Below are positions 600-11,145 of a stretch of DNA of 34,049 bases, piece after piece (within the stretch, counting starts at the first letter, position 1; each line of letters starts with the position of its first letter). A program made the translations under genes and the position numbers. Under the pieces are notes generated by a model. It made no database searches, was not told the DNA's origin, and saw only the letters and a program-made list of their open reading frames with translations. The stretch is from Candidatus Gottesmanbacteria bacterium (GTDB lineage: Bacteria > Patescibacteriota > Microgenomatia > UBA10105 > UBA927): NCBI GenBank assembly GCA_016218215.1, contig JACREM010000063.1, positions 1-34,049 of the forward strand. Reading direction: 5' to 3'.

Positions 600-995
600 C
601 TACTCAATGACAGTGATTACTCCGGTAATGTATGGTGCAAGATGATCGTGCATTTCCCATGTTCCAATCTTACCAAACACAAAATCCCATGATTTTCCCG
701 GTAGGACCGGCTCCTTCGGATCAAACTCAGGATACATCAAATGCGATGGGTGGAGATTACTTGCAGGCCAACGCGCAACAGATGTTGCATTGAAAAAAAC
801 CACTTTCGTCCCTTTTTTGACCGTCAAGGAATTCGGTATATATTCGTCTTCACGCATTGAAATCGTGACGGAATTCGTTACAACCCTTTTTGACCCCCCG
901 CGTGTTACTGAATTTCTATACATGAGCAATGCACTAACAACAATACCTACGAGGCAAAGGGTAATGACAAATGATAGTTTCTTAAGTATTCTCAT
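600..995 (-). CDS. Membrane-anchored cupredoxin-like protein without the type 1 copper Cys
   Basis: 131 aa from the ATG at 995; the open frame runs 6 bases further to a GTG. A GGTGG-like Shine-Dalgarno precedes the ATG. Residues 5-25 are a signal anchor. The rest reads as a small cupredoxin beta-sandwich: the TVKKGTKVVFFN strand, the WPASNLHPSH segment with His82 and His85, FDP...LPGKSWDFVF, and a C-terminal GTWEMHDHL...GVITV. In a classical type 1 site the last segment carries Cys and Met ligands; here Asp and Ile occupy those places, while His117 and His119 remain. It may bind copper through histidines or not at all. It lies 20 bases after the DUF7282-like gene on the same strand, probably co-transcribed. 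Confidence 0.75.
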   Translation of the reverse strand: MRILKKLSFVITLCLVGIVVSALLMYRNSVTRGGSKRVVTNSVTISMREDEYIPNSLTVKKGTKVVFFNATSVARWPASNLHPSHLMYPEFDPKEPVLPGKSWDFVFGKIGTWEMHDHLAPYITGVITVIE

Positions 996-1015
996 GCCCA
1001 CCGACAGGACTACTG

Positions 1016-1474
1016 TCAGAGTGCCGTAAACATCTTTATGACCGGCTTTCCGAACAGGTCTCTCAGAGTCGGGTCATTTCCCCTGGTAAAACATAATTCA
1101 TTCATTCTTCGAAGTGTCACCGAAATCTGTGACCCGGACTCGATCGTTACTGTTTTACCTGCATACGTACTTGTTGCATCGTTTGGCAAAAATGGAACTT
1201 CTATATCCGTATACGTTCCGGGGAGAAGATTGATCGTCCTGCCAATAGTCTGCCCGGGGTAACCTTGATTTGTTGCCTGCAGAAGTATATACGCTCCGCT
1301 TGCGTCTTTTATCGTCACTTTCTTCAGCCTAACAGCATTAAATATTTTTTGATCGCTGACGGTAATAGAGTTCGTTTTAATCAAAAATACATAAACTCCA
1401 GCCAGTACTACTTCTGCTATGAGAATTGAAAAAATTCCTACGAATACCATGAGTATTTGCTGTGTGTTTTTCAT
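1016..1474 (-). CDS. One-helix membrane protein, DUF7282-like paralog A
   Basis: 152 aa from the ATG at 1474, which has a GGGGGA Shine-Dalgarno; the frame is open further upstream to 1579 but that would run into the divergent gene. Residues 7-32 are a membrane helix. The exported part starts with TNSITVSDQ (residues 34-42) and ends with a LRDLFGKPVIKMF segment. The same order of blocks (V-x-DQ, a strand, G-x-x-WLP-x-GT-like loop, a final FG-x-x-V-x-K-F segment) recurs in three other proteins of this window. This one is the most diverged: its central loop reads NLLPGTYTDI. The layout resembles DUF7282-type domains. Function unknown. It is divergent from the haloperoxidase/FG-GAP gene. Confidence 0.7.
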   Translation of the reverse strand: MKNTQQILMVFVGIFSILIAEVVLAGVYVFLIKTNSITVSDQKIFNAVRLKKVTIKDASGAYILLQATNQGYPGQTIGRTINLLPGTYTDIEVPFLPNDATSTYAGKTVTIESGSQISVTLRRMNELCFTRGNDPTLRDLFGKPVIKMFTAL

Positions 1475-1536
1475 TCTTCCCCCTTGAATATCATAGTCTA
1501 TTAGCATAGTATCATTACAATAAACACGAGTACAAT

Positions 1537-4401
1537 ATGGTAAGAAAACATACACATAGTCCTCTGCGCACGCCTGCAAATATGTTCCAAAAAATTATTC
1601 CGATACTCTCTCTCATCGTTCTGTTTTTCGTTGTCTACTTAGGCATTACCGGCTTTATACTCTATCATCGCGACCTCATTCTTACCCAAAAAATAGACCG
1701 GTATAAAAAATCGGAAACCCGGCATTCAGACGTACCTTCCCGATACAACGCAATCACCGCAATGGAAATTGTAAAGAAAGAAAATTTCTCCCCTACAATC
1801 GCATCAAGATTTTATGCATATGTAGTCAGCGTCTATGCAGACGTTCTTTCCTCGACAAATGACGAAACCCAGGCCGCCCTGTCAACCTCCGAATTTCTAA
1901 ACATGATCGCGCCAAAACATCAAGCGTATATTTCCGAGCGTCTCAATGCCCTCGTCCCTCATCCTCCCCAAATAACAGACAAAGCACAAGTTATCCTTGA
2001 CTCTTATAATAAACGACTGACAGAAGATAATTTTTCTCTTGCTACAGAGATAGTCCCTCCGGTAAATCGTGATACAGGATGGTATGTGAGACAATCCATG
2101 ATCGACAAAGGTGCCAAAGCAGGAGATTGGAAACCCTGGGTTATCAATGCAGACGATTCGCTTGAAATTACCCCAAAACCACCTAATCGTGGTTCATTTA
2201 CGGACAGATATGAACTGGCAAAAGTTGAATTTGCAACGAAAAAACGCACCAAATCCGACATTGACAGCATCTATTTCTGGCACGGCGCGACAGGGTTTAT
2301 CAAGGGTCAAGCCGGAGACAATGTCACACCAACAGGTGCATGGCTTAACATCCTGTACGAGGAACTTGGAAAAACCGTGGACAACCGCGAGTTTGCCCGT
2401 ATGCAAAAAATCCTAGCCCAGAGTATAGCAGATTCCTTTATCACTACTTGGAAAGTCAAATATACCTATTGGACACAACGTCCGTCTATGAGAATCCCCC
2501 TTCATGACCTTGCCGTAGCAGATCCGCCATTTCCATCTTACATATCCGGGCATTCAACGATTTCCCATACTGCGTCTACTGTCCTTTCGTACTTGTATCC
2601 TTCTAAACGGATGCTTTGGACGGCGCTCGCTCATGACGCAAAAAATTCCCGCCTACTGGCCGGTATCCACTTCGGTATTGACAATGACGTCGGGGAGTAC
2701 ATAGGAACGCTAGTCGGAAACAAAGTAATATCCAAAATCTCCGACACAAAGCTCGCGAATAAACCTTTCCCGTCTCTTTTGCCTTTCCAAATGGTACCTG
2801 AATATATACTGTTACGCCTCGGCGTTTTGTATTTAAAAATAAAAGAAATTCTCATCGGCATAATTACAGAATATTCAGTTCCAGCCCCACGGACGAAATA
2901 TAAGAATATAACAACATCTGCGGGAATTGATCGTAAAGTCGGCGACAACGGCGTATCCTGGGGCGATTATAACGGCGACGGGTATGATGATCTTCTTATT
3001 ATCAACACGAACAAACAAGGCAACAGGCTGTACCGCAACAATAAAGACGGTACCTTTACCAACGTCGCGCGCGAAGCAGGCATCAGGTCAGATATCTTTG
3101 GAAAAGTCGGAGTATTCGGAGACTATGACAATGATGGATGCGAAGATTTATATATCGCCGTCGGTAACTATACATATCAGAATGAAAACCAGGATATACT
3201 CTACCACAATAACTGCAATGGAACATTTACCGATGTCACCCAACAAGCCGGCATAAAAGACTCATATCACGGCTCCGGGGCCTCATGGGTAGATTACGAC
3301 AATGACGGATATCTTGACCTTTATGTCGCTAATTTCGGACAAAAAATCGGCAATAACTGGAATGCGGAACCAGGTCTTCTCTACCACAACAATAAAAACG
3401 GAACATTTACGGAAGTTGCGATGTCTGCGGGAGTAACCGAAGGAGCAAAGGTTACATCCATCGACGCACACTTCGTCGACGGCAAAGATAACCGTCTCAG
3501 AACCGGACTTTCTCATCAGGGCGTATGGTTTGACTACAACAATGACGGATTCCAGGACTTGTTTGTCGCGACAGACCGAGGCGTGAGCCCGCTGTACAAA
3601 AATAATGGCAACGGGACGTTTACAGACTCTACAATCGCAACCGATGTCACCGAACAGGCAGGACTAAACTTCGGCGGAACAAACATGGGTGTTGCCATCG
3701 GTGACTATGACAACAACGGCTATCTTGACATCTATACGACAAACTACGCGGATAATTATCTTTGGAAGAATAACGGCAATGGTACGTTTACAGAAGTTGG
3801 CGCTCAAACACATACGGCAGATGCATCGGCTATCGGCTGGGGCACTGCGTTTCTGGACGGTGATAACGACGGAAATCTAGATATAGCCGTAGCAAACGGC
3901 GCAGTAGCAGAGACACTCCTAAGCCCGGAGCGTACTTTCACAACAAGCATAGATTCGTATTTTCAAAATAACGGTGACGGGACGTTTGGACGTGTTACAA
4001 AAAGAGCAGGACTTGAAAATAATTTCGTGAGCCGCGGCCTTGCAGTCTCGGATTTTGATCACGACGGTTTTCCCGACTTAATCATATCAAACGAGGAAAA
4101 ACCTGACGCGCTTTTCCATAACCTCGGAAATCATAACCACTGGCTTGAAGTAAAACTTGAAGGGACTGTATCCAATAGGGACGCTATCGGAGCGCGACTT
4201 ACATTAGTTGCCAACGGGAAAACTCAGATCAGAGAAGTTTCAAGCGGATCATCATACGCATCACAAAACAGTCTCGTACAGATGTTCGGTATCGGGAAAG
4301 AAACAAACGTTTCGTCTCTTACGATCCGATGGCCATCCGGTAAAACGACAATCAAAGAAAACATTACTGCAGATCAATTAATCCACATCACGGAAAAGTA
4401 G
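1537..4401 (+). CDS. Membrane-anchored vanadium-haloperoxidase-type PAP2 domain fused to FG-GAP repeats and ASPIC/UnbV
   Basis: 954 aa. One N-terminal helix (about 20-42) should place the rest outside the membrane. Residues about 240-400 are a PAP2-superfamily helical domain with the full haloperoxidase signature: K308-x6-R315-P316, S337-G338-H339, and S371-R372-x5-H378-x3-D382, H378 being the expected vanadate ligand. Seven FG-GAP/VCBS repeats follow (starting near 473, 524, 583, 663, 718, 768 and 834), each with a DxDxDG-type calcium loop such as DYDNDGYLD and an LYxNNxxGTF strand. An ASPIC/UnbV domain fills about 868-952. This C-terminal half is CRTAC1-like. Family knowledge predicts vanadate-dependent oxidation of halides by peroxide, or acid-phosphatase activity. 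A second possible start is the ATG at 1582; a TACAAT hexamer abuts the first ATG. Confidence 0.88.
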   Translation: MVRKHTHSPLRTPANMFQKIIPILSLIVLFFVVYLGITGFILYHRDLILTQKIDRYKKSETRHSDVPSRYNAITAMEIVKKENFSPTIASRFYAYVVSVYADVLSSTNDETQAALSTSEFLNMIAPKHQAYISERLNALVPHPPQITDKAQVILDSYNKRLTEDNFSLATEIVPPVNRDTGWYVRQSMIDKGAKAGDWKPWVINADDSLEITPKPPNRGSFTDRYELAKVEFATKKRTKSDIDSIYFWHGATGFIKGQAGDNVTPTGAWLNILYEELGKTVDNREFARMQKILAQSIADSFITTWKVKYTYWTQRPSMRIPLHDLAVADPPFPSYISGHSTISHTASTVLSYLYPSKRMLWTALAHDAKNSRLLAGIHFGIDNDVGEYIGTLVGNKVISKISDTKLANKPFPSLLPFQMVPEYILLRLGVLYLKIKEILIGIITEYSVPAPRTKYKNITTSAGIDRKVGDNGVSWGDYNGDGYDDLLIINTNKQGNRLYRNNKDGTFTNVAREAGIRSDIFGKVGVFGDYDNDGCEDLYIAVGNYTYQNENQDILYHNNCNGTFTDVTQQAGIKDSYHGSGASWVDYDNDGYLDLYVANFGQKIGNNWNAEPGLLYHNNKNGTFTEVAMSAGVTEGAKVTSIDAHFVDGKDNRLRTGLSHQGVWFDYNNDGFQDLFVATDRGVSPLYKNNGNGTFTDSTIATDVTEQAGLNFGGTNMGVAIGDYDNNGYLDIYTTNYADNYLWKNNGNGTFTEVGAQTHTADASAIGWGTAFLDGDNDGNLDIAVANGAVAETLLSPERTFTTSIDSYFQNNGDGTFGRVTKRAGLENNFVSRGLAVSDFDHDGFPDLIISNEEKPDALFHNLGNHNHWLEVKLEGTVSNRDAIGARLTLVANGKTQIREVSSGSSYASQNSLVQMFGIGKETNVSSLTIRWPSGKTTIKENITADQLIHITEK

Positions 4402-4431
4402 CGTTAGTAGAGTTTCACTTCACTTTTATTA

Positions 4432-4995
4432 TTATTGTACGATCAACTTCCGAACGACAGGCCGTCCAATTACATCACGAAGAACACTATTCTCCGACGT
4501 GATCCCCTGTTCGAGAATGTCCACATCGTGAAGTGAGACATATACCGTCTCTCCTGCTTTTGGACGAATAATTTCATTTCCTTGTCTATTTTCTATGTTA
4601 GAAACACCAAGGGGAATGCCAATATATGAGTGAGTACCTCGAGGGAGCCATGGAGAGAATCCAACCATCGTCCCGCCTTTCGACACGCCATTTATCGAAA
4701 GCTTTATTCTTGCCCCGCGAGGACTTGCCACAAACACCTGGTCAATAATAACAAATTCACCAAGCGCCTGATCATGGACAGTCATGCTGTTTCTCGAAAC
4801 ATACACATACCCAAAAACGATCAGTAAAAAAATAGAAAAAATACCAAATCCCACAAAGCGGAAAAGTATATGTTCTTTCGTAGGTAACGGCGATTGCCCT
4901 ACAGGCGGTTGCTTCAGCTCAACTATATTAGGAATGGGAAGAGTTGAGGTATTTGAAAGCACTTGTTGTGCTGCTGAAATAGATGGCTGATCCAT
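4432..4995 (-). CDS. One-helix membrane protein, DUF7282-like paralog B
   Basis: 187 aa. A soluble Pro/Gln-rich N-terminal tail of about 45 residues is followed by a membrane helix (46-66), then RNSMTVHDQ (68-76), a first beta region with the GARIKLSINGV segment, the GFSPWLPRGTHSYIGIPLG block (112-130), a KAGETVYVSLHD strand and a terminal RDVIGRPVVRKLIVQ segment. The blocks align closely with paralog D (7135-7707). The DQ motif, S-x-WL-x-xGT loop and final segment resemble DUF7282-type exported domains. No catalytic residues are evident. It converges on the haloperoxidase/FG-GAP gene with 30 bases between. Its own promoter lies just upstream with a perfect TTGACA box. Confidence 0.7.
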   Translation of the reverse strand: MDQPSISAAQQVLSNTSTLPIPNIVELKQPPVGQSPLPTKEHILFRFVGFGIFSIFLLIVFGYVYVSRNSMTVHDQALGEFVIIDQVFVASPRGARIKLSINGVSKGGTMVGFSPWLPRGTHSYIGIPLGVSNIENRQGNEIIRPKAGETVYVSLHDVDILEQGITSENSVLRDVIGRPVVRKLIVQ

Positions 4996-5002
4996 ACTTT
5001 AA

Positions 5003-5031
5003 GCGTTACACACCAATTCTATCACTGTCAA
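5003..5031 (-). promoter_or_regulatory. Promoter for paralog B, leaderless-type
   Basis: Read on the minus strand, TTGACA (5031-5026) is followed after 17 bases by TAACGC (5008-5003), and only 7 bases then separate this hexamer from the ATG at 4995. The -35 box is perfect and the -10 weak. The predicted transcript would start at or next to the ATG. Confidence 0.5.
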
Positions 5032-5051
5032 CAATTTAATATTTTTTCGCC

Positions 5052-5081
5052 TTGAGAATCTTCATGAGAAGAATGTATGAT
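5052..5081 (+). promoter_or_regulatory. Promoter for the GT-C-like gene, leaderless-type
   Basis: TTGAGA (5052-5057) and TATGAT (5076-5081) are each one base off consensus and 18 bases apart. The ATG at 5094 follows 12 bases later. Earlier in-frame starts (TTG 5052, ATG 5064, ATG 5073) lie inside the promoter, so 5094 is preferred as the translation start. Confidence 0.55.
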
Positions 5082-5093
5082 CTTGGTATACAC

Positions 5094-6602
5094 ATGAATA
5101 TCCAGGTAATAATAAACCACTCCATAAAAAAGGTTAGACTCCTGGTATTGCTCATGGGAATTTCTCTTTTTGCCGGCGTCTGTATATCTTTAAGAAACTA
5201 CTTTCCGATTCCAAACACAAATTTTTTTGCATATGCAAAGGAAGGAAACGAATATCTATCTGGCAAAATACCAGAGCTCGTAAAGCTTCCACCTGTCTAT
5301 TCGATACTTATTACTATCCCTGGTCTCTTTATTCATTCTGATTATATACAGCTAAAAACCGCAGTTATGATGAATATTGTCCTCATTACTTCTTCTTTTT
5401 TATTGATCTACGTATATCTTAAGAAGATAGATACACAGATCAGTTTACCGATTACATGCTTACTCATGAGTAACTTTCTGAGCTTTATCGTAGCGCTCCA
5501 ACCAATAAATACCGCTGCTTTCGTGTTTCTGTTCATGGTTGCACTGACGCTTGATATATACAAAAAAAAACGCTTGCCGATGATCATCGCAGGGATTGGC
5601 TACCTTGTGCGCCCTGAGTCTATTGTCCTCCTGTGTACTCTCTTTGTAAAAAATCTTGTACTTGTTTTTTTAGGCCATAACAAAATACAAAAGACGAAAG
5701 AAAAAATCATACTTTTCACCGATTATTTTTTTATATCCCTCACCCCCTTCGTTATTTGGGAGGCATTTGCCTATTATCATAATGCCAAAGCGAACGACTA
5801 TTTTCTTGAAATTGCACGAAGAATAAATGAAATTCCCAATTGGTCGTTTTTAGTTGATTCCGAGGTTAATTATCTTTTCTATACTCTCGCACTCCCAAAA
5901 ATAATAGTGCTTTCATTTATGATTGTATTGGTTAGTATTTGTACGATTCTTCTTATACGGGGGAAATTTCGAGAAATTGCTACTCTTCTTTTGTTTTCAC
6001 TATTGTATGCGGCTATACATGTATTCTTCCCTGTTGCCTCTGGCAGATACTCGTATGTGCTGTTGTTGATAAATTATGTTCTTCTCTTCGTTCCGATCCT
6101 TTACTTGCATACCATGCATCACATCACCTCACATCAAAAGTCAATCCTTATTGTGCTACTTACCTTTTTTTTACTGTATGTAAACGTGAGGGATTTACCT
6201 CAAGGTTTTGCAAAAGAAAAAAAATACAGAGAAGAAGCGCTCTTACTCATTGAGTATTTACGCTCAAATAACTTTACCAAACAAACAGTGATATTGATTC
6301 CGGAGCCATGGATTGCACAATATTTTAATCAAAACACCAAGGTTTCTGTCGTTTCTGCACCAATAAACTGCATAAGCCTATCATGCCTCACGAAGGACAA
6401 TGCAATACAATCTGCAGAGGAAGTATTGGTTGCACTCGATAGTTATACATCGCGGGCTCTCGGAAAAAAATATTTCAAAAATTTCCCTCATGCTAAATTT
6501 TTTGAATATTTTGACACTCGCTTATCAGCGTCTATGGTACCAATATATAGTGCAACGCTTAACGATAGTTGGATACGTATATACCAACTTTCATCGCATT
6601 AA
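5094..6602 (+). CDS. Polytopic membrane protein, probable GT-C-type glycosyltransferase
   Basis: About 502 aa from the ATG at 5094, chosen because of the promoter just upstream; the frame is open to 5052. There are ten or so hydrophobic helices and a soluble C-terminal part of about 130 residues after the last helix. After helix 1 comes a loop with Tyr, Glu and the LVKLPPVYSIL segment, which recalls the first extracytoplasmic loop of GT-C enzymes (ArnT/PMT type), where acidic residues bind the polyprenyl-phosphate sugar donor. GYLVRPES after the central helices also fits that group. Substrate unknown. It lies between DUF7282-like genes and converges on paralog C. The assignment rests on topology and short motifs, so a different membrane family is possible. 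Confidence 0.6.
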   Translation: MNIQVIINHSIKKVRLLVLLMGISLFAGVCISLRNYFPIPNTNFFAYAKEGNEYLSGKIPELVKLPPVYSILITIPGLFIHSDYIQLKTAVMMNIVLITSSFLLIYVYLKKIDTQISLPITCLLMSNFLSFIVALQPINTAAFVFLFMVALTLDIYKKKRLPMIIAGIGYLVRPESIVLLCTLFVKNLVLVFLGHNKIQKTKEKIILFTDYFFISLTPFVIWEAFAYYHNAKANDYFLEIARRINEIPNWSFLVDSEVNYLFYTLALPKIIVLSFMIVLVSICTILLIRGKFREIATLLLFSLLYAAIHVFFPVASGRYSYVLLLINYVLLFVPILYLHTMHHITSHQKSILIVLLTFFLLYVNVRDLPQGFAKEKKYREEALLLIEYLRSNNFTKQTVILIPEPWIAQYFNQNTKVSVVSAPINCISLSCLTKDNAIQSAEEVLVALDSYTSRALGKKYFKNFPHAKFFEYFDTRLSASMVPIYSATLNDSWIRIYQLSSH

Positions 6603-6619
6603 AACAGTGTCATTATTAC

Positions 6620-7129
6620 TTAAAGAAGAACAAACTTTTTTACCAAGCTTCGTCCGAAAAGATCAAAAAGAATATTTTGTATATCCTCTTCTACAACCAG
6701 CATATTTTCTTCTGCTTTATAAAGCATTGCATATAATATGTCTCCTTTTTTAGGCGCAATGGTCGTGGTTCTACTATCAGTTTTCCCTTCTATGACGTTT
6801 AATCTTACTCCTATATGCGTATGCTTACCCGGAGCAAGCCATGGCGACATGCCTACCCAATCACGCCCATCCGTCATACCATGAAGGGAAAGTACGATCC
6901 GTGCCCCTTTGGCATTTCCTATGGTGACGCTTTCAATATCTACGCTCTTTCCAGACCCGAGTATCTGATCGAAGACTTCAAGATCATTTTTATGCTTTAA
7001 TATCGACAAAAATCCAGATATAAAAAAAACAATTATGACAGAAATCATCAATATCAATACAAACAGCCTCGGCAAAAACGAACTATGTGCATCATAAACG
7101 TGTGGAATATTTGTTGACGGAATATTCAT
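6620..7129 (-). CDS. One-helix membrane protein, DUF7282-like paralog C
   Basis: 169 aa from the ATG at 7129; the frame is open to 7354, but that would overlap paralog D and gives a Cys-rich non-homologous extension. Residues 21-43 are a membrane helix. The exported domain contains LEVFDQ (50-55), GARIVLSLHGM, WVGMSPWLAPGKHTHIGVRL (91-110), a PKKGDILYAMLY strand and the terminal LFGRSLVKKFVLL. Compared with B and D it lacks the NS-x-TVHDQ consensus, and its C-terminal part is acidic (around EENMLVVEED). It is the third gene of a minus-strand unit: permease/FG-GAP gene, paralog D, paralog C, with gaps of 6 and 5 bases. That makes a functional link to the permease fusion likely. Function unknown. 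Confidence 0.7.
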   Translation of the reverse strand: MNIPSTNIPHVYDAHSSFLPRLFVLILMISVIIVFFISGFLSILKHKNDLEVFDQILGSGKSVDIESVTIGNAKGARIVLSLHGMTDGRDWVGMSPWLAPGKHTHIGVRLNVIEGKTDSRTTTIAPKKGDILYAMLYKAEENMLVVEEDIQNILFDLFGRSLVKKFVLL

Positions 7130-7134
7130 ATCCT

Positions 7135-7707
7135 TTAAAATACAGTAAACTTTTCTATCACTTCTTTCCCGAAAATTGCATGAAGCAATGTCGAGGCAGT
7201 CGTAATCTGCTGCTCTATCTTGGATGATGCAAACAACGACGCATATATTCTGTCCCCTTTCGTAGGCATTAATATTTTTGATGAGCCGCTCGCATCCGTA
7301 GATTCTACACCAAGGGGTATCCCTACATATGAATATGTACCAGATGGCAGCCATGCAGATGTTCCGACTCTCTGTCCTCCCTCAAGAGACCCATTGATTG
7401 TTAGCGCTATTCGCCCACCAGAAGGATTAGATATAGAAACCTCGTCAACTATAGCGTAGTCTTCAAGCGGCTGATCATGAACTGTTATGCTATTTCTCGA
7501 AACATCCACATAACGTGCTGCTAATAAAAAAATTGCAAAAAATACAACGGATACGAAAATTCGTTTCTTTCCTCGTGATCCATCGATAGATGCATGATGC
7601 ATCAAATATGTCTGCGCATATCCTTCTTTTGTTTGGTTTGAAACAGACGGACCTATAGAAGAATTTGCTATACCCGATTGACCGCTTTGTACGAGTTGTT
7701 CACCCAT
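7135..7707 (-). CDS. One-helix membrane protein, DUF7282-like paralog D
   Basis: 190 aa. A polar N-terminal tail (1-48) is followed by a membrane helix (49-65), RNSITVHDQ (71-79), a GGRIALTINGS strand, the GTSAWLPSGTYSYVGIPLG block (115-133), a TKGDRIYASLF strand and a terminal HAIFGKEVIEKFTVF segment. It is the closest relative of paralog B. A GGGAG Shine-Dalgarno sits at its start, as expected for an internal operon gene. It follows the permease/FG-GAP gene by 6 bases and precedes paralog C by 5. The domain resembles DUF7282-type exported domains; the biochemical role is unknown. Confidence 0.72.
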   Translation of the reverse strand: MGEQLVQSGQSGIANSSIGPSVSNQTKEGYAQTYLMHHASIDGSRGKKRIFVSVVFFAIFLLAARYVDVSRNSITVHDQPLEDYAIVDEVSISNPSGGRIALTINGSLEGGQRVGTSAWLPSGTYSYVGIPLGVESTDASGSSKILMPTKGDRIYASLFASSKIEQQITTASTLLHAIFGKEVIEKFTVF

Positions 7708-7713
7708 ATATCA

Positions 7714-10383
7714 TTACTCCCTTTCAACTATTGTGATTTTTTGATTGGAAGAAATATTAGATAGAGACTGACGGATACCGCTTGGCCAAAAAACGTTTAT
7801 AGTATCAACGCGATCAGCGTCTTTTAATCCAAACGTAAGCCAGGAACTATTCTGAGAATAAAATGAGGATCCGCTTATAACCTGTTGGGTCTGTGCATTA
7901 CCCTGAGTTGTTAGCTTAACCGTCGCCCCCACTCCGTCTCTGTTGCTTTTGATTCCGACGAGCTTTAGGGTTATCCAATAATTTCCGTTGCCGCGATTTT
8001 TATAAAATCTATTTATCTGAGAGCTTTTTTTCTCTCTCATTGCATCAGATACGATAAATACATCAACAAATCCGTCGTTATTATAATCGCCAAACGCAGC
8101 GCCGGTTTTTGGTTCATTCCCGTATAGACCCGACCGAAACGTCACATCGGCAAACGTTCCATCGCCATTATTTCGGAAAAGAAAATCATCAAAATATGTT
8201 ATCGATCTTCGGGAATACGCGTCACCGACTATGCCATTTACTGCATAAATATCGATATTTCCGTCATTATCCAAATCCAAGAATCCTGTTCCCCATCCTA
8301 GGAGATTTCGAGATATCCCAAGTTTTCGTGCAACATTTGCAAAGGTACCGTTCCCATTATTTTTCCATAAAAAATACTCTCCGGTATTGGTCACGAAAAG
8401 ATCAAGATAACCATCACGGTTATAGTCTCCGACCGCAACTCCCATGCCTGTGGCAAACCTGCAAAGCCCTGCGTCATTTGTCACATCGACAAACGTTCCG
8501 TCACCGTTGTTTTTGTATAAAGGGCTAACTCCTGTATCTGTAGCGATAAATAAATCAAGTTTTCCGTCATTATTATAATCAAACCACACAGGCTGATACG
8601 ATAATTTTTCTCTCGTCTCTCCGACAAGCGTAAATTCCTGCTTTTTGCCGGTATCGTATATTTTTTTTGGGCACTGTGCATTACCCGACGCGCCCGCCGC
8701 ATCAATACGGTTCGTAAACGTTCCGTTACCATTATTGTGATAAAGAATATTCGGCTCAATCACGTGCGTTTTATTCCCTATGTCAGCACCAATATTGGTA
8801 ACATATACATCAAGATATCCATCATTATCATAATCTCCCCAGGCGGCTCCGGTTGCGTGGTACGTATTAAGCATTCCGGCGGAACTCGAAACATCGACAA
8901 AGGTACCCTTGCATGTGTTATGAAAAAGCATATCCCTATTGCCTATTCGATCTGTACTATTTGAGGCCATGCTAAGATACAGATCAGGACACCCGTCATT
9001 ATCATAATCTCCAAATATTCCTGCGCTAACGATACTCGGAGAATGTATTCCTGCATCTTTAGTAACATCGACAAATGTATCATTCCCCATATTCTTATAA
9101 AGTTTTATATTTTTATCCTTCTTTCCTCCGACAACTAATAAGTCCAATTTACCGTCACCGTCATAATCCGCCCAAGATACTCCAGACCCAGGTCCATTGC
9201 TTACCATGGGAGTATCTTTCAATATATCTACATATATACGCGGATACATTCTCAAGGCAACATAGTCCAAGCCCATAACAGTAAGTCCCCCAAGAATTCC
9301 GATACACGTCACTGCGACAAAAACCGCGACTGCGAGTCTTTTAGAGACATACTGCCAGAGTATCGAAGCCGAAAAAATGCTATATGCAGGAAGCGTTATG
9401 AGAAGTGCCATCGCAAGACCACGGGAGAGACCGCTTTCAATAAGCGAAAGCACCAAAATAACATCGACAAGCATTGGGATAGGAAGAAGAGTACCCAAAA
9501 CAGACGCAAGCACAACAAGGACAAATTGATTTGTCTCTGGTCGGATAAAAAGTTCAAGCGGAATATACACCGCCATAACCCCGCCTAAAATTCCGGCGAG
9601 AATCATAAGAGGGAGAGTCAACGCGATTAACTTTACTGTCTCAAATAAAAATGAGCGTAAGGAAAAAAACAGCGCATGCCCCCAGGTCTCTTGCAATTCA
9701 ATCATTTCTCCCACTGAAACCTGTGAATCTACCCCCGCTTTCTGAGGCACCAATACGCTTATAAGTGGAACGACTATAAGAATAAGAATAAATGTGGCGA
9801 CCACCTTTATAAACGCCAGATCAAAGGAAAACACGCTAAATGCTATATACAAAGCTACAATGTTCAGCATCGGAGAAGAAAGCATTGATGCAAGTGTCGT
9901 TTCAATGCTCACGCCTTTTTTACGAAATGACAGCCCTATCGGTGCCACACAATTTGCACATACCCCGAGGGGGATCCCGGATACAAGGCCAATAAACGCG
10001 CCCTTCCAACCACGAAGACAGAATAATCCTTTTTTTAGTGAGAGGGATGAGAAAAGCGCCAGAAATCCACCGCCAAAGAGTATGCCAAAACTCATTCCTA
10101 CTCTGTTGGTATAAAACCAATTTACAGACGTCTTGGCGATAATCACAAACGCGGAATCTTCGAGAGTTTGTCTCCCGGCATGCGTGCTCATGAGTTCATC
10201 CTTGGTTATACGACCAAGATTTCGCTCTGTCAACGTGCCTTCATAGGCTCGTTCGCCTTCATGAATAAGAGCCGGATAACGTGAGATAAACCAAAAAATA
10301 GATACAATTACACCTAATATACATAAATGTATGACAACACGCTTATGGGAAAAAAGTTTGCGGAAAAATGATATTCGTTTCAT
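7714..10383 (-). CDS. YraQ/ArsP-type permease fused to FG-GAP repeats and ASPIC/UnbV
   Basis: 889 aa from the ATG at 10383 (an in-frame ATG at 10401 adds six residues). A first helix (about 16-34) and an extracytoplasmic stretch lead into a permease core (about 95-372) with eight or more helices. The segment GIPLGVCANCVAPIGLSF with Cys142 and Cys145, then KKGVSIETTLASMLSSP, matches the conserved half-repeat of COG0701 permeases. Then follow seven FG-GAP/VCBS repeats (about 398-795) with DxDxDG calcium loops, and an ASPIC/UnbV domain (about 800-887). This half mirrors the haloperoxidase-like protein block for block. Family members move small molecules or arsenicals; the substrate here is unknown. 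The propeller is predicted to lie outside the cell. Fusion of this permease family to a CRTAC1-type propeller is unusual. Confidence 0.85.
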   Translation of the reverse strand: MKRISFFRKLFSHKRVVIHLCILGVIVSIFWFISRYPALIHEGERAYEGTLTERNLGRITKDELMSTHAGRQTLEDSAFVIIAKTSVNWFYTNRVGMSFGILFGGGFLALFSSLSLKKGLFCLRGWKGAFIGLVSGIPLGVCANCVAPIGLSFRKKGVSIETTLASMLSSPMLNIVALYIAFSVFSFDLAFIKVVATFILILIVVPLISVLVPQKAGVDSQVSVGEMIELQETWGHALFFSLRSFLFETVKLIALTLPLMILAGILGGVMAVYIPLELFIRPETNQFVLVVLASVLGTLLPIPMLVDVILVLSLIESGLSRGLAMALLITLPAYSIFSASILWQYVSKRLAVAVFVAVTCIGILGGLTVMGLDYVALRMYPRIYVDILKDTPMVSNGPGSGVSWADYDGDGKLDLLVVGGKKDKNIKLYKNMGNDTFVDVTKDAGIHSPSIVSAGIFGDYDNDGCPDLYLSMASNSTDRIGNRDMLFHNTCKGTFVDVSSSAGMLNTYHATGAAWGDYDNDGYLDVYVTNIGADIGNKTHVIEPNILYHNNGNGTFTNRIDAAGASGNAQCPKKIYDTGKKQEFTLVGETREKLSYQPVWFDYNNDGKLDLFIATDTGVSPLYKNNGDGTFVDVTNDAGLCRFATGMGVAVGDYNRDGYLDLFVTNTGEYFLWKNNGNGTFANVARKLGISRNLLGWGTGFLDLDNDGNIDIYAVNGIVGDAYSRRSITYFDDFLFRNNGDGTFADVTFRSGLYGNEPKTGAAFGDYNNDGFVDVFIVSDAMREKKSSQINRFYKNRGNGNYWITLKLVGIKSNRDGVGATVKLTTQGNAQTQQVISGSSFYSQNSSWLTFGLKDADRVDTINVFWPSGIRQSLSNISSNQKITIVERE

Positions 10384-10391
10384 GGCAAATA

Positions 10392-10400
10392 AAAATACCA
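10392..10400 (-). promoter_or_regulatory. Possible extended -10 for the permease/FG-GAP gene
   Basis: On the minus strand TGG-TATTTT (10400-10392) has the TGn extension and a TATxxT core, 8 bases before the ATG at 10383. If used, translation would begin at 10383 on an almost leaderless mRNA. No -35 box is recognisable. Confidence 0.3.
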
Positions 10401-10449
10401 TCTACACAAAATTTGTAATCTATATTACAATATCTGATAGAGTCTCAGA

Positions 10450-10482
10450 TTGACAAACAAGAGAGACTATCTCTATTATAAT
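10450..10482 (+). promoter_or_regulatory. Promoter with perfect TTGACA, leaderless-type
   Basis: TTGACA lies at 10450-10455. Two overlapping -10 candidates follow: TATTAT (10474-10479, spacing 18) and TATAAT (10477-10482, spacing 21). The ATG at 10486 is 6 bases after TATTAT, so the transcript would start at the ATG itself. A frame open from the TTG at 10450 would place coding sequence over the promoter and is rejected. Confidence 0.6.
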
Positions 10483-10485
10483 ACC

Positions 10486-11145
10486 ATGATACGAAAAAAA
10501 TCAGGACGCACCAAACTCAGAAATACCAATCCTCTTCCAATGCCTTTTCCGGTTGATATCAATACAGATGACAAAAAATCAATAAAAAAGAAGGCACTAT
10601 TCTACCTCGTAGTTCTTCTTGTAATTGTCGTGTCATTTATGCTTGGATATAAAGCAGGCGATTACGCTATCTCATCCGGAATGCTTCAAAAATTGCAATC
10701 AAAAACGGGCATGCTGTCTCAAATTTTTCAAAAAAAGCAACTGCAGTCTAATTTTACCAAAACGACAACAAAAACAGACCAAAAGAGCAAAACGCAAGCC
10801 TCTCTTACTATCGGCAATGTCACGCTCACAACTCCAAAAACTCCTGAGGAAGAGAAGCAATTCGGGGAACAGGTTGACAAACTTTCCGTAGAAACATCTA
10901 CGATTACAATAAAAGACGGATGCGTCATCGATCCTATTATCCCAAAGGTTCAATTCGGAAAATCAGTCGAAATATTTAATAATACAAATACCAAAGAAAC
11001 TCTGACCATAGGAGAAACAGGAACGACCCTGGAGCTCAAGCCAAAAGAAAAAATTCAAGCCCCTGTAAAGTTTAACGGTCAGGGAATATACTCTATGCTT
11101 TGTGGTTCAGAAGGGTTATCCGGACTGCTAAAAATTGTAAACTAA
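10486..11145 (+). CDS. Membrane-anchored protein with C-terminal cupredoxin-like fold
   Basis: 219 aa. A basic N terminus of about 35 residues and one membrane helix (37-54) are followed by a Lys/Thr/Gln-rich linker (66-130) and a beta-rich C-terminal domain (about 138-219). That domain reads like a reduced cupredoxin: ITIKDGCVIDPII, VQFGKSVEIFNN, ELKPKEKIQAPVKF, then GQGIYSMLCGSEGLSGLLKIV. Cys205 sits where the copper Cys of a Y-x-x-x-C-G strand would be, but the expected histidines are missing. Cys146 and Cys205 could instead form a disulfide. Copper binding is therefore not predicted with confidence. It is divergent from the permease/FG-GAP gene and has its own promoter. Confidence 0.65.
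   Translation: MIRKKSGRTKLRNTNPLPMPFPVDINTDDKKSIKKKALFYLVVLLVIVVSFMLGYKAGDYAISSGMLQKLQSKTGMLSQIFQKKQLQSNFTKTTTKTDQKSKTQASLTIGNVTLTTPKTPEEEKQFGEQVDKLSVETSTITIKDGCVIDPIIPKVQFGKSVEIFNNTNTKETLTIGETGTTLELKPKEKIQAPVKFNGQGIYSMLCGSEGLSGLLKIVN

What the first reader, a model, noticed from the sequence alone, without database searches (positions are those of the whole stretch)
1537..10383. Same CRTAC1-type propeller module placed on two unrelated membrane modules
The proteins at 1537-4401 and 7714-10383 share a C-terminal half made of seven FG-GAP/VCBS repeats and an ASPIC/UnbV domain, with the same repeat order and matching insertions (for example a long insert after repeat 3 and a GWGTxFLDxDNDGN repeat 6). 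Their N-terminal halves are unrelated: a haloperoxidase-type PAP2 enzyme in one, a YraQ/ArsP-type permease in the other. Domain swapping of a calcium-dependent propeller onto an enzyme and a transporter, 6 kb apart and each beside DUF7282-like genes, suggests a modular surface system in which the propeller is a shared docking or recognition part. Domain identity is read from sequence; the system idea is inference.
Basis: partly seen in the sequence, partly recalled or inferred. Interest (0 to 1): 0.75.

Follow-up and report, generated by a model that had tools for sequence, protein, structure and literature searches.

The report
Shared calcium propeller on two proteins
A small, uncultured bacterium carries two neighbouring genes in which the same calcium-binding propeller domain is joined to a haloperoxidase-like enzyme in one protein and to a membrane permease in the other; the permease fusion already exists unnoticed on plasmids of marine Roseobacter bacteria, while the enzyme fusion was found nowhere else.

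Summary
The proteins at 1537-4401 (+) and 7714-10401 (-) each end in seven FG-GAP blades plus a UnbV/ASPIC domain (47-49% identical). They share a roughly 20-residue insert after repeat 3 that nearly all sampled relatives lack. Both modules fold confidently as seven blades plus a C-terminal domain, and mouse CRTAC1 is the best solved match. The N-terminal halves are unrelated: a single-helix-anchored vanadium-haloperoxidase/PAP2-like enzyme with a complete active-site signature, and an ArsP_1/UPF0718 permease.

What changes the picture: the permease fusion is not unique. Eight proteins on Roseobacter plasmids match its permease half at 31-36% identity; the seven domain-scanned are permease plus FG-GAP, six of them with UnbV. 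Those aligned share a CxNC motif that standalone permeases lack. Their propellers, however, are not the window's closest relatives (AU p = 0.006), so the module was probably copied or exchanged within this lineage. The haloperoxidase fusion was found nowhere else, but haloperoxidase and CRTAC1-type genes lie close together in Gemmatirosa and Hymenobacter.

The DUF7282-like neighbours are local and not conserved with the module. 'Modular' is supported; 'surface docking system' remains inference. Verdict: new variant of a known kind, moderate interest.

The parts
1537..4401 (+). 954-aa protein: N-terminal anchor helix, VHPO/PAP2-like enzyme domain, 7-blade FG-GAP propeller, UnbV/ASPIC domain
1585..1668 (+). 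predicted N-terminal membrane helix (aa 17-44)
   Evidence: hydrophobic stretch read from sequence; helix in model
1759..2736 (+). vanadium-haloperoxidase-like / PAP2 domain (aa 75-400) with K308, R315, S337-G338-H339, R372, H378
   Evidence: PF01569 31.0 bits over cut-off 27.2; PDB 4cit E 4e-11; motif positions; alignment with standalone homologues
2899..4161 (+). seven-blade propeller with seven DxDxDG-type loops (aa 455-875)
3415..3516 (+). insert after repeat 3, shared with the other window module
4183..4383 (+). UnbV/ASPIC domain
   Evidence: PF07593
7714..10401 (-). 895-aa protein: ArsP_1/UPF0718 permease, 7-blade FG-GAP propeller, UnbV/ASPIC domain
9268..10344 (-). permease domain (aa 20-378), closest to the fused permeases of Roseobacter plasmids
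   Evidence: PF03773 85.2 bits; 31-36% identity to 8 plasmid proteins; alignments A5, A6
9949..9960 (-). CxNC motif (C148, C151) shared with the aligned fused permeases; standalone UPF0718 permeases read CSC here
7957..9195 (-). seven-blade propeller with seven DxDxDG-type loops (aa 403-815)
8587..8709 (-). insert after repeat 3 (aa 565-605)
7732..7935 (-). UnbV/ASPIC domain
   Evidence: PF07593
7135..7707 (-). DUF7282-like gene, 6 bases downstream of the permease-propeller gene on the same strand (probable operon)
   Evidence: 18.8 bits, below cut-off 27; alignment A2
6620..7354 (-). DUF7282-like paralogue (homologous part 6623-7120)
4432..4995 (-). DUF7282-like paralogue
1016..1579 (-). DUF7282-like paralogue
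   Evidence: 20.7 bits, below cut-off
600..1001 (-). cupredoxin-like protein with HDH where the usual Cys/His/Met copper ligands are expected; family common in relatives
   Evidence: motif read from sequence

Best explanation
Two exoplasmic proteins of one locus carry paralogous copies of a CRTAC1-type module: a calcium-bladed seven-blade propeller plus a UnbV domain. In one, the module is joined to a membrane-anchored vanadium-haloperoxidase/PAP2-like enzyme. In the other, it sits on the outer face of a CxNC-type UPF0718 permease. Most likely mechanism (inferred): calcium-stabilised propellers hold the enzyme and the permease against the same extracellular partner (a surface glycan, a surface protein, or each other), so that oxidative or phospho-ester chemistry and transport of a small ion or product happen at the same place. 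Shown: architecture, homology, paralogy of the modules, existence of the permease fusion in a second phylum. Inferred: exoplasmic side, calcium binding, shared partner, substrate.
For: Domains over Pfam cut-offs. Models with pLDDT above 90 over most of both modules, the same seven-blade order, and CRTAC1 9etn as top PDB match, E 4.7e-32 and 6.5e-31. Seven DxDxDG loops each; such 'calcium blades' bind Ca2+ in integrin, PilY1 and fungal lectin propellers (PMC3123361). Two modules sister, shared insert. Positive-inside pattern puts the permease C-terminus outside. Eight Roseobacter plasmid proteins have the same permease type on an FG-GAP protein. VHPO and CRTAC1-type genes adjacent in Gemmatirosa and in one cluster in Hymenobacter. 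A CRTAC1-type module is also fused to a di-haem peroxidase/MauG domain in Alteromonas, and a CRTAC1 gene lies beside a cytochrome c peroxidase gene in Phaeobacter.
Against: No second genome was found with both fusions or this neighbourhood. None of the 80 closest global module loci has a VHPO homologue within about 6 kb, so that pairing is uncommon. Nothing identifies a ligand, and the top-face residues of the two propellers were not compared. The enzyme and permease halves of the models are low confidence.
Confidence: 0.45

Rival explanations
1. No joint system. The module is a generic stabilising or secretion-competent C-terminal domain that duplicated within the locus; the enzyme and the permease work independently and share only ancestry of the tail.
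For: Module sisterhood and shared insert are explained by duplication alone. The module is fused to many unrelated partners elsewhere: TPR, NHL/Ig, di-haem peroxidase. No conserved neighbourhood in relatives.
Against: The same permease subtype is tied to an FG-GAP module in two phyla with different propeller lineages, which suggests that the permease needs a propeller rather than carrying a random tail.
Confidence: 0.35
2. The module is specifically an accessory of extracytoplasmic peroxidase-type enzymes (vanadium haloperoxidase, di-haem peroxidase/MauG), and the permease moves an ion or product linked to that chemistry such as vanadate, phosphate, halide or an organic product.
For: Fusion here; adjacent or clustered genes in Gemmatirosa and Hymenobacter; MauG-FG-GAP-UnbV fusion in Alteromonas and a peroxidase neighbour in Phaeobacter; CRTAC1-type genes next to hydrazine-synthase-like genes (PMC12758564).
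Against: Most CRTAC1 loci examined have no haloperoxidase nearby; Roseobacter permease fusions sit mostly among exopolysaccharide, sulfotransferase or glucan genes rather than peroxidases.
Confidence: 0.15
3. Assembly or binning artefact: chimaeric ORFs or a foreign contig in the genome bin.
For: The module has no match in the same family among 138 relatives searched; the window is one contig of a 96-contig assembly.
Against: Both frames are open without stops; two separate fusions on opposite strands; the permease fusion exists on independently sequenced plasmids; neighbours have homologues in the same family; estimated contamination 0.28%.
Confidence: 0.03

Closest known systems
CRTAC1 / ASPIC-UnbV family (PF13517 + PF07593; mouse CRTAC1, PDB 9etn)
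   Same: Seven FG-GAP blades followed by a UnbV domain; best PDB match of both models; 20-21% identity to 9etn in the Foldseek alignments, about 35-40% to the best bacterial CRTAC1 proteins
   Different: Most bacterial members sampled have under about 130 residues before the module; here 380-450-residue enzyme or permease halves precede it, and an extra insert follows repeat 3
Permease-FG-GAP-UnbV proteins of Roseobacter plasmids (annotated only 'FG-GAP-like repeat-containing protein')
   Same: Same domain order, same permease subtype with GVCxNC and SRYPAL motifs, 31-36% identity in the permease half
   Different: Total length about 1000-1068 aa, and their propellers are from another lineage: a clade of the window permease's module with theirs is rejected, AU p 0.006
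UPF0718/YraQ/ArsP permeases (PF03773)
   Same: Pfam match over cut-off
   Different: Standalone members aligned have FCSC, not CxNC, and lack the N-terminal SRYPAL segment; far below SaoE and SO_0444 equivalog cut-offs
Vanadium-dependent haloperoxidases / PAP2 phosphatases (PF01569; haloperoxidase PDB 4cit)
   Same: Complete K-X6-RP, PSxxSGH, SRX5H signature; 35% identical standalone homologue in another genome of the phylum
   Different: Fused to a CRTAC1-type module; no other case found here

Membership tests
CRTAC1 / ASPIC-UnbV | multiple FG-GAP repeats followed by a UnbV/ASPIC domain | tested here: met
   both proteins over cut-off
CRTAC1 / ASPIC-UnbV | seven-blade propeller plus C-terminal domain as in CRTAC1 | tested here: met
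   (predicted; TM-score to 9etn 0.73-0.75 by target length)
CRTAC1 / ASPIC-UnbV | extracytoplasmic location | tested here: inconclusive
   N-terminal helix and loop charges favour it; not measured
CRTAC1 / ASPIC-UnbV | metal binding by the blade loops | not testable with these tools
   seven DxDxDG loops each
Vanadium haloperoxidase / PAP2 | Pfam PAP2 over cut-off | tested here: met
   31.0 against 27.2 bits
Vanadium haloperoxidase / PAP2 | vanadate/phosphate-binding K, R, S-G-H, R, H residues | tested here: met
   K308, R315, S337-G338-H339, R372, H378
Vanadium haloperoxidase / PAP2 | halide oxidation rather than phosphatase activity | not testable with these tools
   closest PDB entry 4cit is a haloperoxidase, the next are acid phosphatases
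UPF0718 / ArsP_1 permease | Pfam ArsP_1 over cut-off | tested here: met
   85.2 against 32.3 bits
UPF0718 / ArsP_1 permease | CSC motif as in the aligned standalone members | tested here: not met
   CANC instead; shared with the fused subfamily
SaoE or SO_0444 metal exporters | NCBIfam equivalog cut-off | tested here: not met
   40.5 against 325 and 28.3 against 300 bits
Roseobacter permease-FG-GAP-UnbV proteins | domain order and CxNC permease subtype | tested here: met
Roseobacter permease-FG-GAP-UnbV proteins | module of the same lineage | tested here: not met
   (long branches, quick trees, so provisional)
DUF7282 | Pfam gathering score | tested here: not met
   18.8 and 20.7 against 27 bits for two of the four genes; no hit for the other two

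The most novel reading that the evidence does not exclude
CxNC-type UPF0718 permeases form an undescribed transporter family that depends on an exoplasmic calcium propeller as a built-in receptor. In this bacterium the same propeller was moved onto a haloperoxidase-like enzyme so that enzyme and transporter address one target.
Probability: 0.25. Interest if true: 0.65.

Novelty: new variant of a known kind. Interest (0 to 1): 0.45.

Why it matters
CRTAC1-type propellers occur from bacteria to humans, and I know of no established molecular role for the bacterial ones. Fused partners are the best available hint. The fusions point to transport and to haloperoxidase/peroxidase-type enzymes, and an apparently unnamed permease subfamily on Roseobacter plasmids becomes a tractable model outside an uncultured bacterium.

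Tried and rejected
Permease half in genome contigs by peptide patterns: no relative confirmed. Viral contigs: one weak 25% match. Searching around a genome outside the phylum with 'of': the locus id was not accepted, genome handles only. Cupredoxin as a conserved partner: rejected, since it occurs in 45 of 96 genomes (own genome included) although the module is nearly absent from these relatives. DUF7282-like genes as a conserved partner: rejected. VHPO as a general CRTAC1 neighbour: rejected as general, 0 of 80 loci. Polytopic N-termini among the 80 best global module hits: none seen by hydropathy; the long N-termini scanned are TPR, NHL/Ig, more FG-GAP, or no family. Promoter and terminator scan: no excess over shuffles. 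Literature on FG-GAP with Patescibacteria, VHPO with FG-GAP, CRTAC1 with VHPO: no papers held; a broader search on FG-GAP, permease, fusion and Roseobacter gave nothing relevant in the eight papers listed.

Full report
Observation. The two ORFs are real and intact. Pfam puts all named domains over their cut-offs. The C-terminal halves (about 505 aa) align end to end, E 3e-138, 47-49% identity. Both have seven DxDxDG-type loops. AlphaFold models built on 40-row alignments give pLDDT above 90 for most module residues, the same seven-blade order and the same C-terminal strands. Foldseek returns mouse CRTAC1 (9etn) first for both, E 4.7e-32 and 6.5e-31.

Special or generic? The module belongs to the CRTAC1/ASPIC family, common in Acidobacteria, Poribacteria and others. 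Repeat 6 and the order are family features. The two window modules nevertheless belong together: they are closer to each other than to any sampled relative, are sisters in three quick trees (SH-aLRT 90, 95, 92), and share a 41/45-residue stretch after repeat 3 that is 21-26 residues in all but one of the relatives aligned (57 in a Thermoplasmata protein, which groups near them). The module has no match in the same family among 138 relatives and is rare in the phylum. A third, more distant UnbV protein lies on contig C27 of the same genome.

N-terminal halves. The enzyme half carries the complete vanadium-haloperoxidase/PAP2 signature, matches the haloperoxidase 4cit best in the PDB, and has a 35% identical standalone homologue in another genome of the phylum with no module beside it. 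It has one N-terminal helix, so it is anchored rather than polytopic. The permease half matches ArsP_1. In relatives and in the class sample, standalone permeases, most of about 300-360 aa, match at 19-28% identity and none is fused to the module.

The key finding is in the plasmid collection. The permease half matches eight Roseobacter plasmid proteins at 31-36% identity over 82-93% of its length, all annotated 'FG-GAP-like repeat-containing protein'. Pfam of seven of them confirms ArsP_1 + FG-GAP, with UnbV in six; in Parasedimentitalea the UnbV part is annotated as a separate ORF. The seven aligned to the window share GVCxNC with it, and the four shown in full alignment share the SRYPAL N-terminal segment, whereas four standalone permeases read FCSC and lack that segment. 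The architecture is therefore an existing, apparently unnamed family. Yet the Roseobacter propellers are not the nearest relatives of the window's: a clade of the window permease's module with them is rejected (AU p 0.006) and so is one with both window modules (p 0.03). These branches are long and the trees are quick ones, so this is provisional. The simplest reading is exchange or copying of the module inside this lineage, onto or from the haloperoxidase protein; the direction is not established.

Context of the Roseobacter fusions: exopolysaccharide, sulfotransferase, SEL1-repeat or glucan genes. Context of the haloperoxidase link: in Gemmatirosa a CRTAC1-type gene is followed directly by a standalone haloperoxidase-like gene; in Hymenobacter a CRTAC1-type gene annotated as VCBS repeat protein lies in one cluster with a frame-shifted haloperoxidase. 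A di-haem peroxidase/MauG domain is fused to the module in Alteromonas, and a cytochrome c peroxidase gene is next to a CRTAC1 gene in Phaeobacter. Against this, none of the 80 closest loci has a haloperoxidase homologue nearby.

Side of the membrane. Over eight fused permeases, the N-terminus of the window protein and the loop after the second hydrophobic region are rich in Lys/Arg with few acids, and the last helix follows a positive loop in the window protein, which places the propeller outside. This is a simple hydropathy and charge argument, not a measurement.

Neighbourhood. Four DUF7282-like paralogues, all below or without the Pfam cut-off and all within this locus, interleave with the two genes. 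One starts 6 bases after the permease-propeller gene on the same strand, so co-transcription is likely. The other genomes found with DUF7282-like genes show no match to the module.

Mechanism. Shown: architecture, fold family, paralogy, a second-phylum permease fusion, and gene proximity of haloperoxidase and CRTAC1 in two other bacteria. Inferred: calcium binding (calcium blades, PMC3123361), exoplasmic position, a common ligand or partner, and the substrate. I rate a shared docking role at about 0.45 and a generic duplicated tail at 0.35.

Limits. The N-terminal halves of the models are unreliable.

Noticed in passing
L162 (G000:C27) 803-11020 and 2283-4181: Tandem cluster of about seven Cys/His-rich, apparently exported paralogues (motifs such as CxHGxGHG, CHVLGH), one fused to the same HDH-type cupredoxin as window 600-1001, beside the genome's third UnbV/FG-GAP protein; no Pfam family found for the three tested.
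   Followed up: partly
L252 (G094:C33) 41-1063 + and 2463-3005 -: A Cys/His-rich protein of the same kind lies on one small contig with a DUF7282-like gene, so these families recur near each other in another genome of the class.
   Followed up: partly
window 600-1001: Cupredoxin-like family in which the usual Cys-His-Met copper ligands appear replaced by HDH; present in 45 of 96 genomes searched, sometimes inside open frames of 500-850 aa.
   Followed up: partly
L216 7791-10889, fused propeller: In the Roseobacter protein read in full, the propeller holds a Cys-rich insertion that the window modules do not show.
   Followed up: no
L223 4246-7566: Alteromonas plasmid protein fusing a di-haem cytochrome c peroxidase/MauG domain to FG-GAP plus UnbV, beside PQQ-dehydrogenase, Rieske and TonB-receptor genes.
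   Followed up: partly
L251 7350-8543 (G182): Haloperoxidase homologue in which parts of the catalytic signature look lost (no RP after KYIYWSP, no SGH), perhaps an inactive copy.
   Followed up: no
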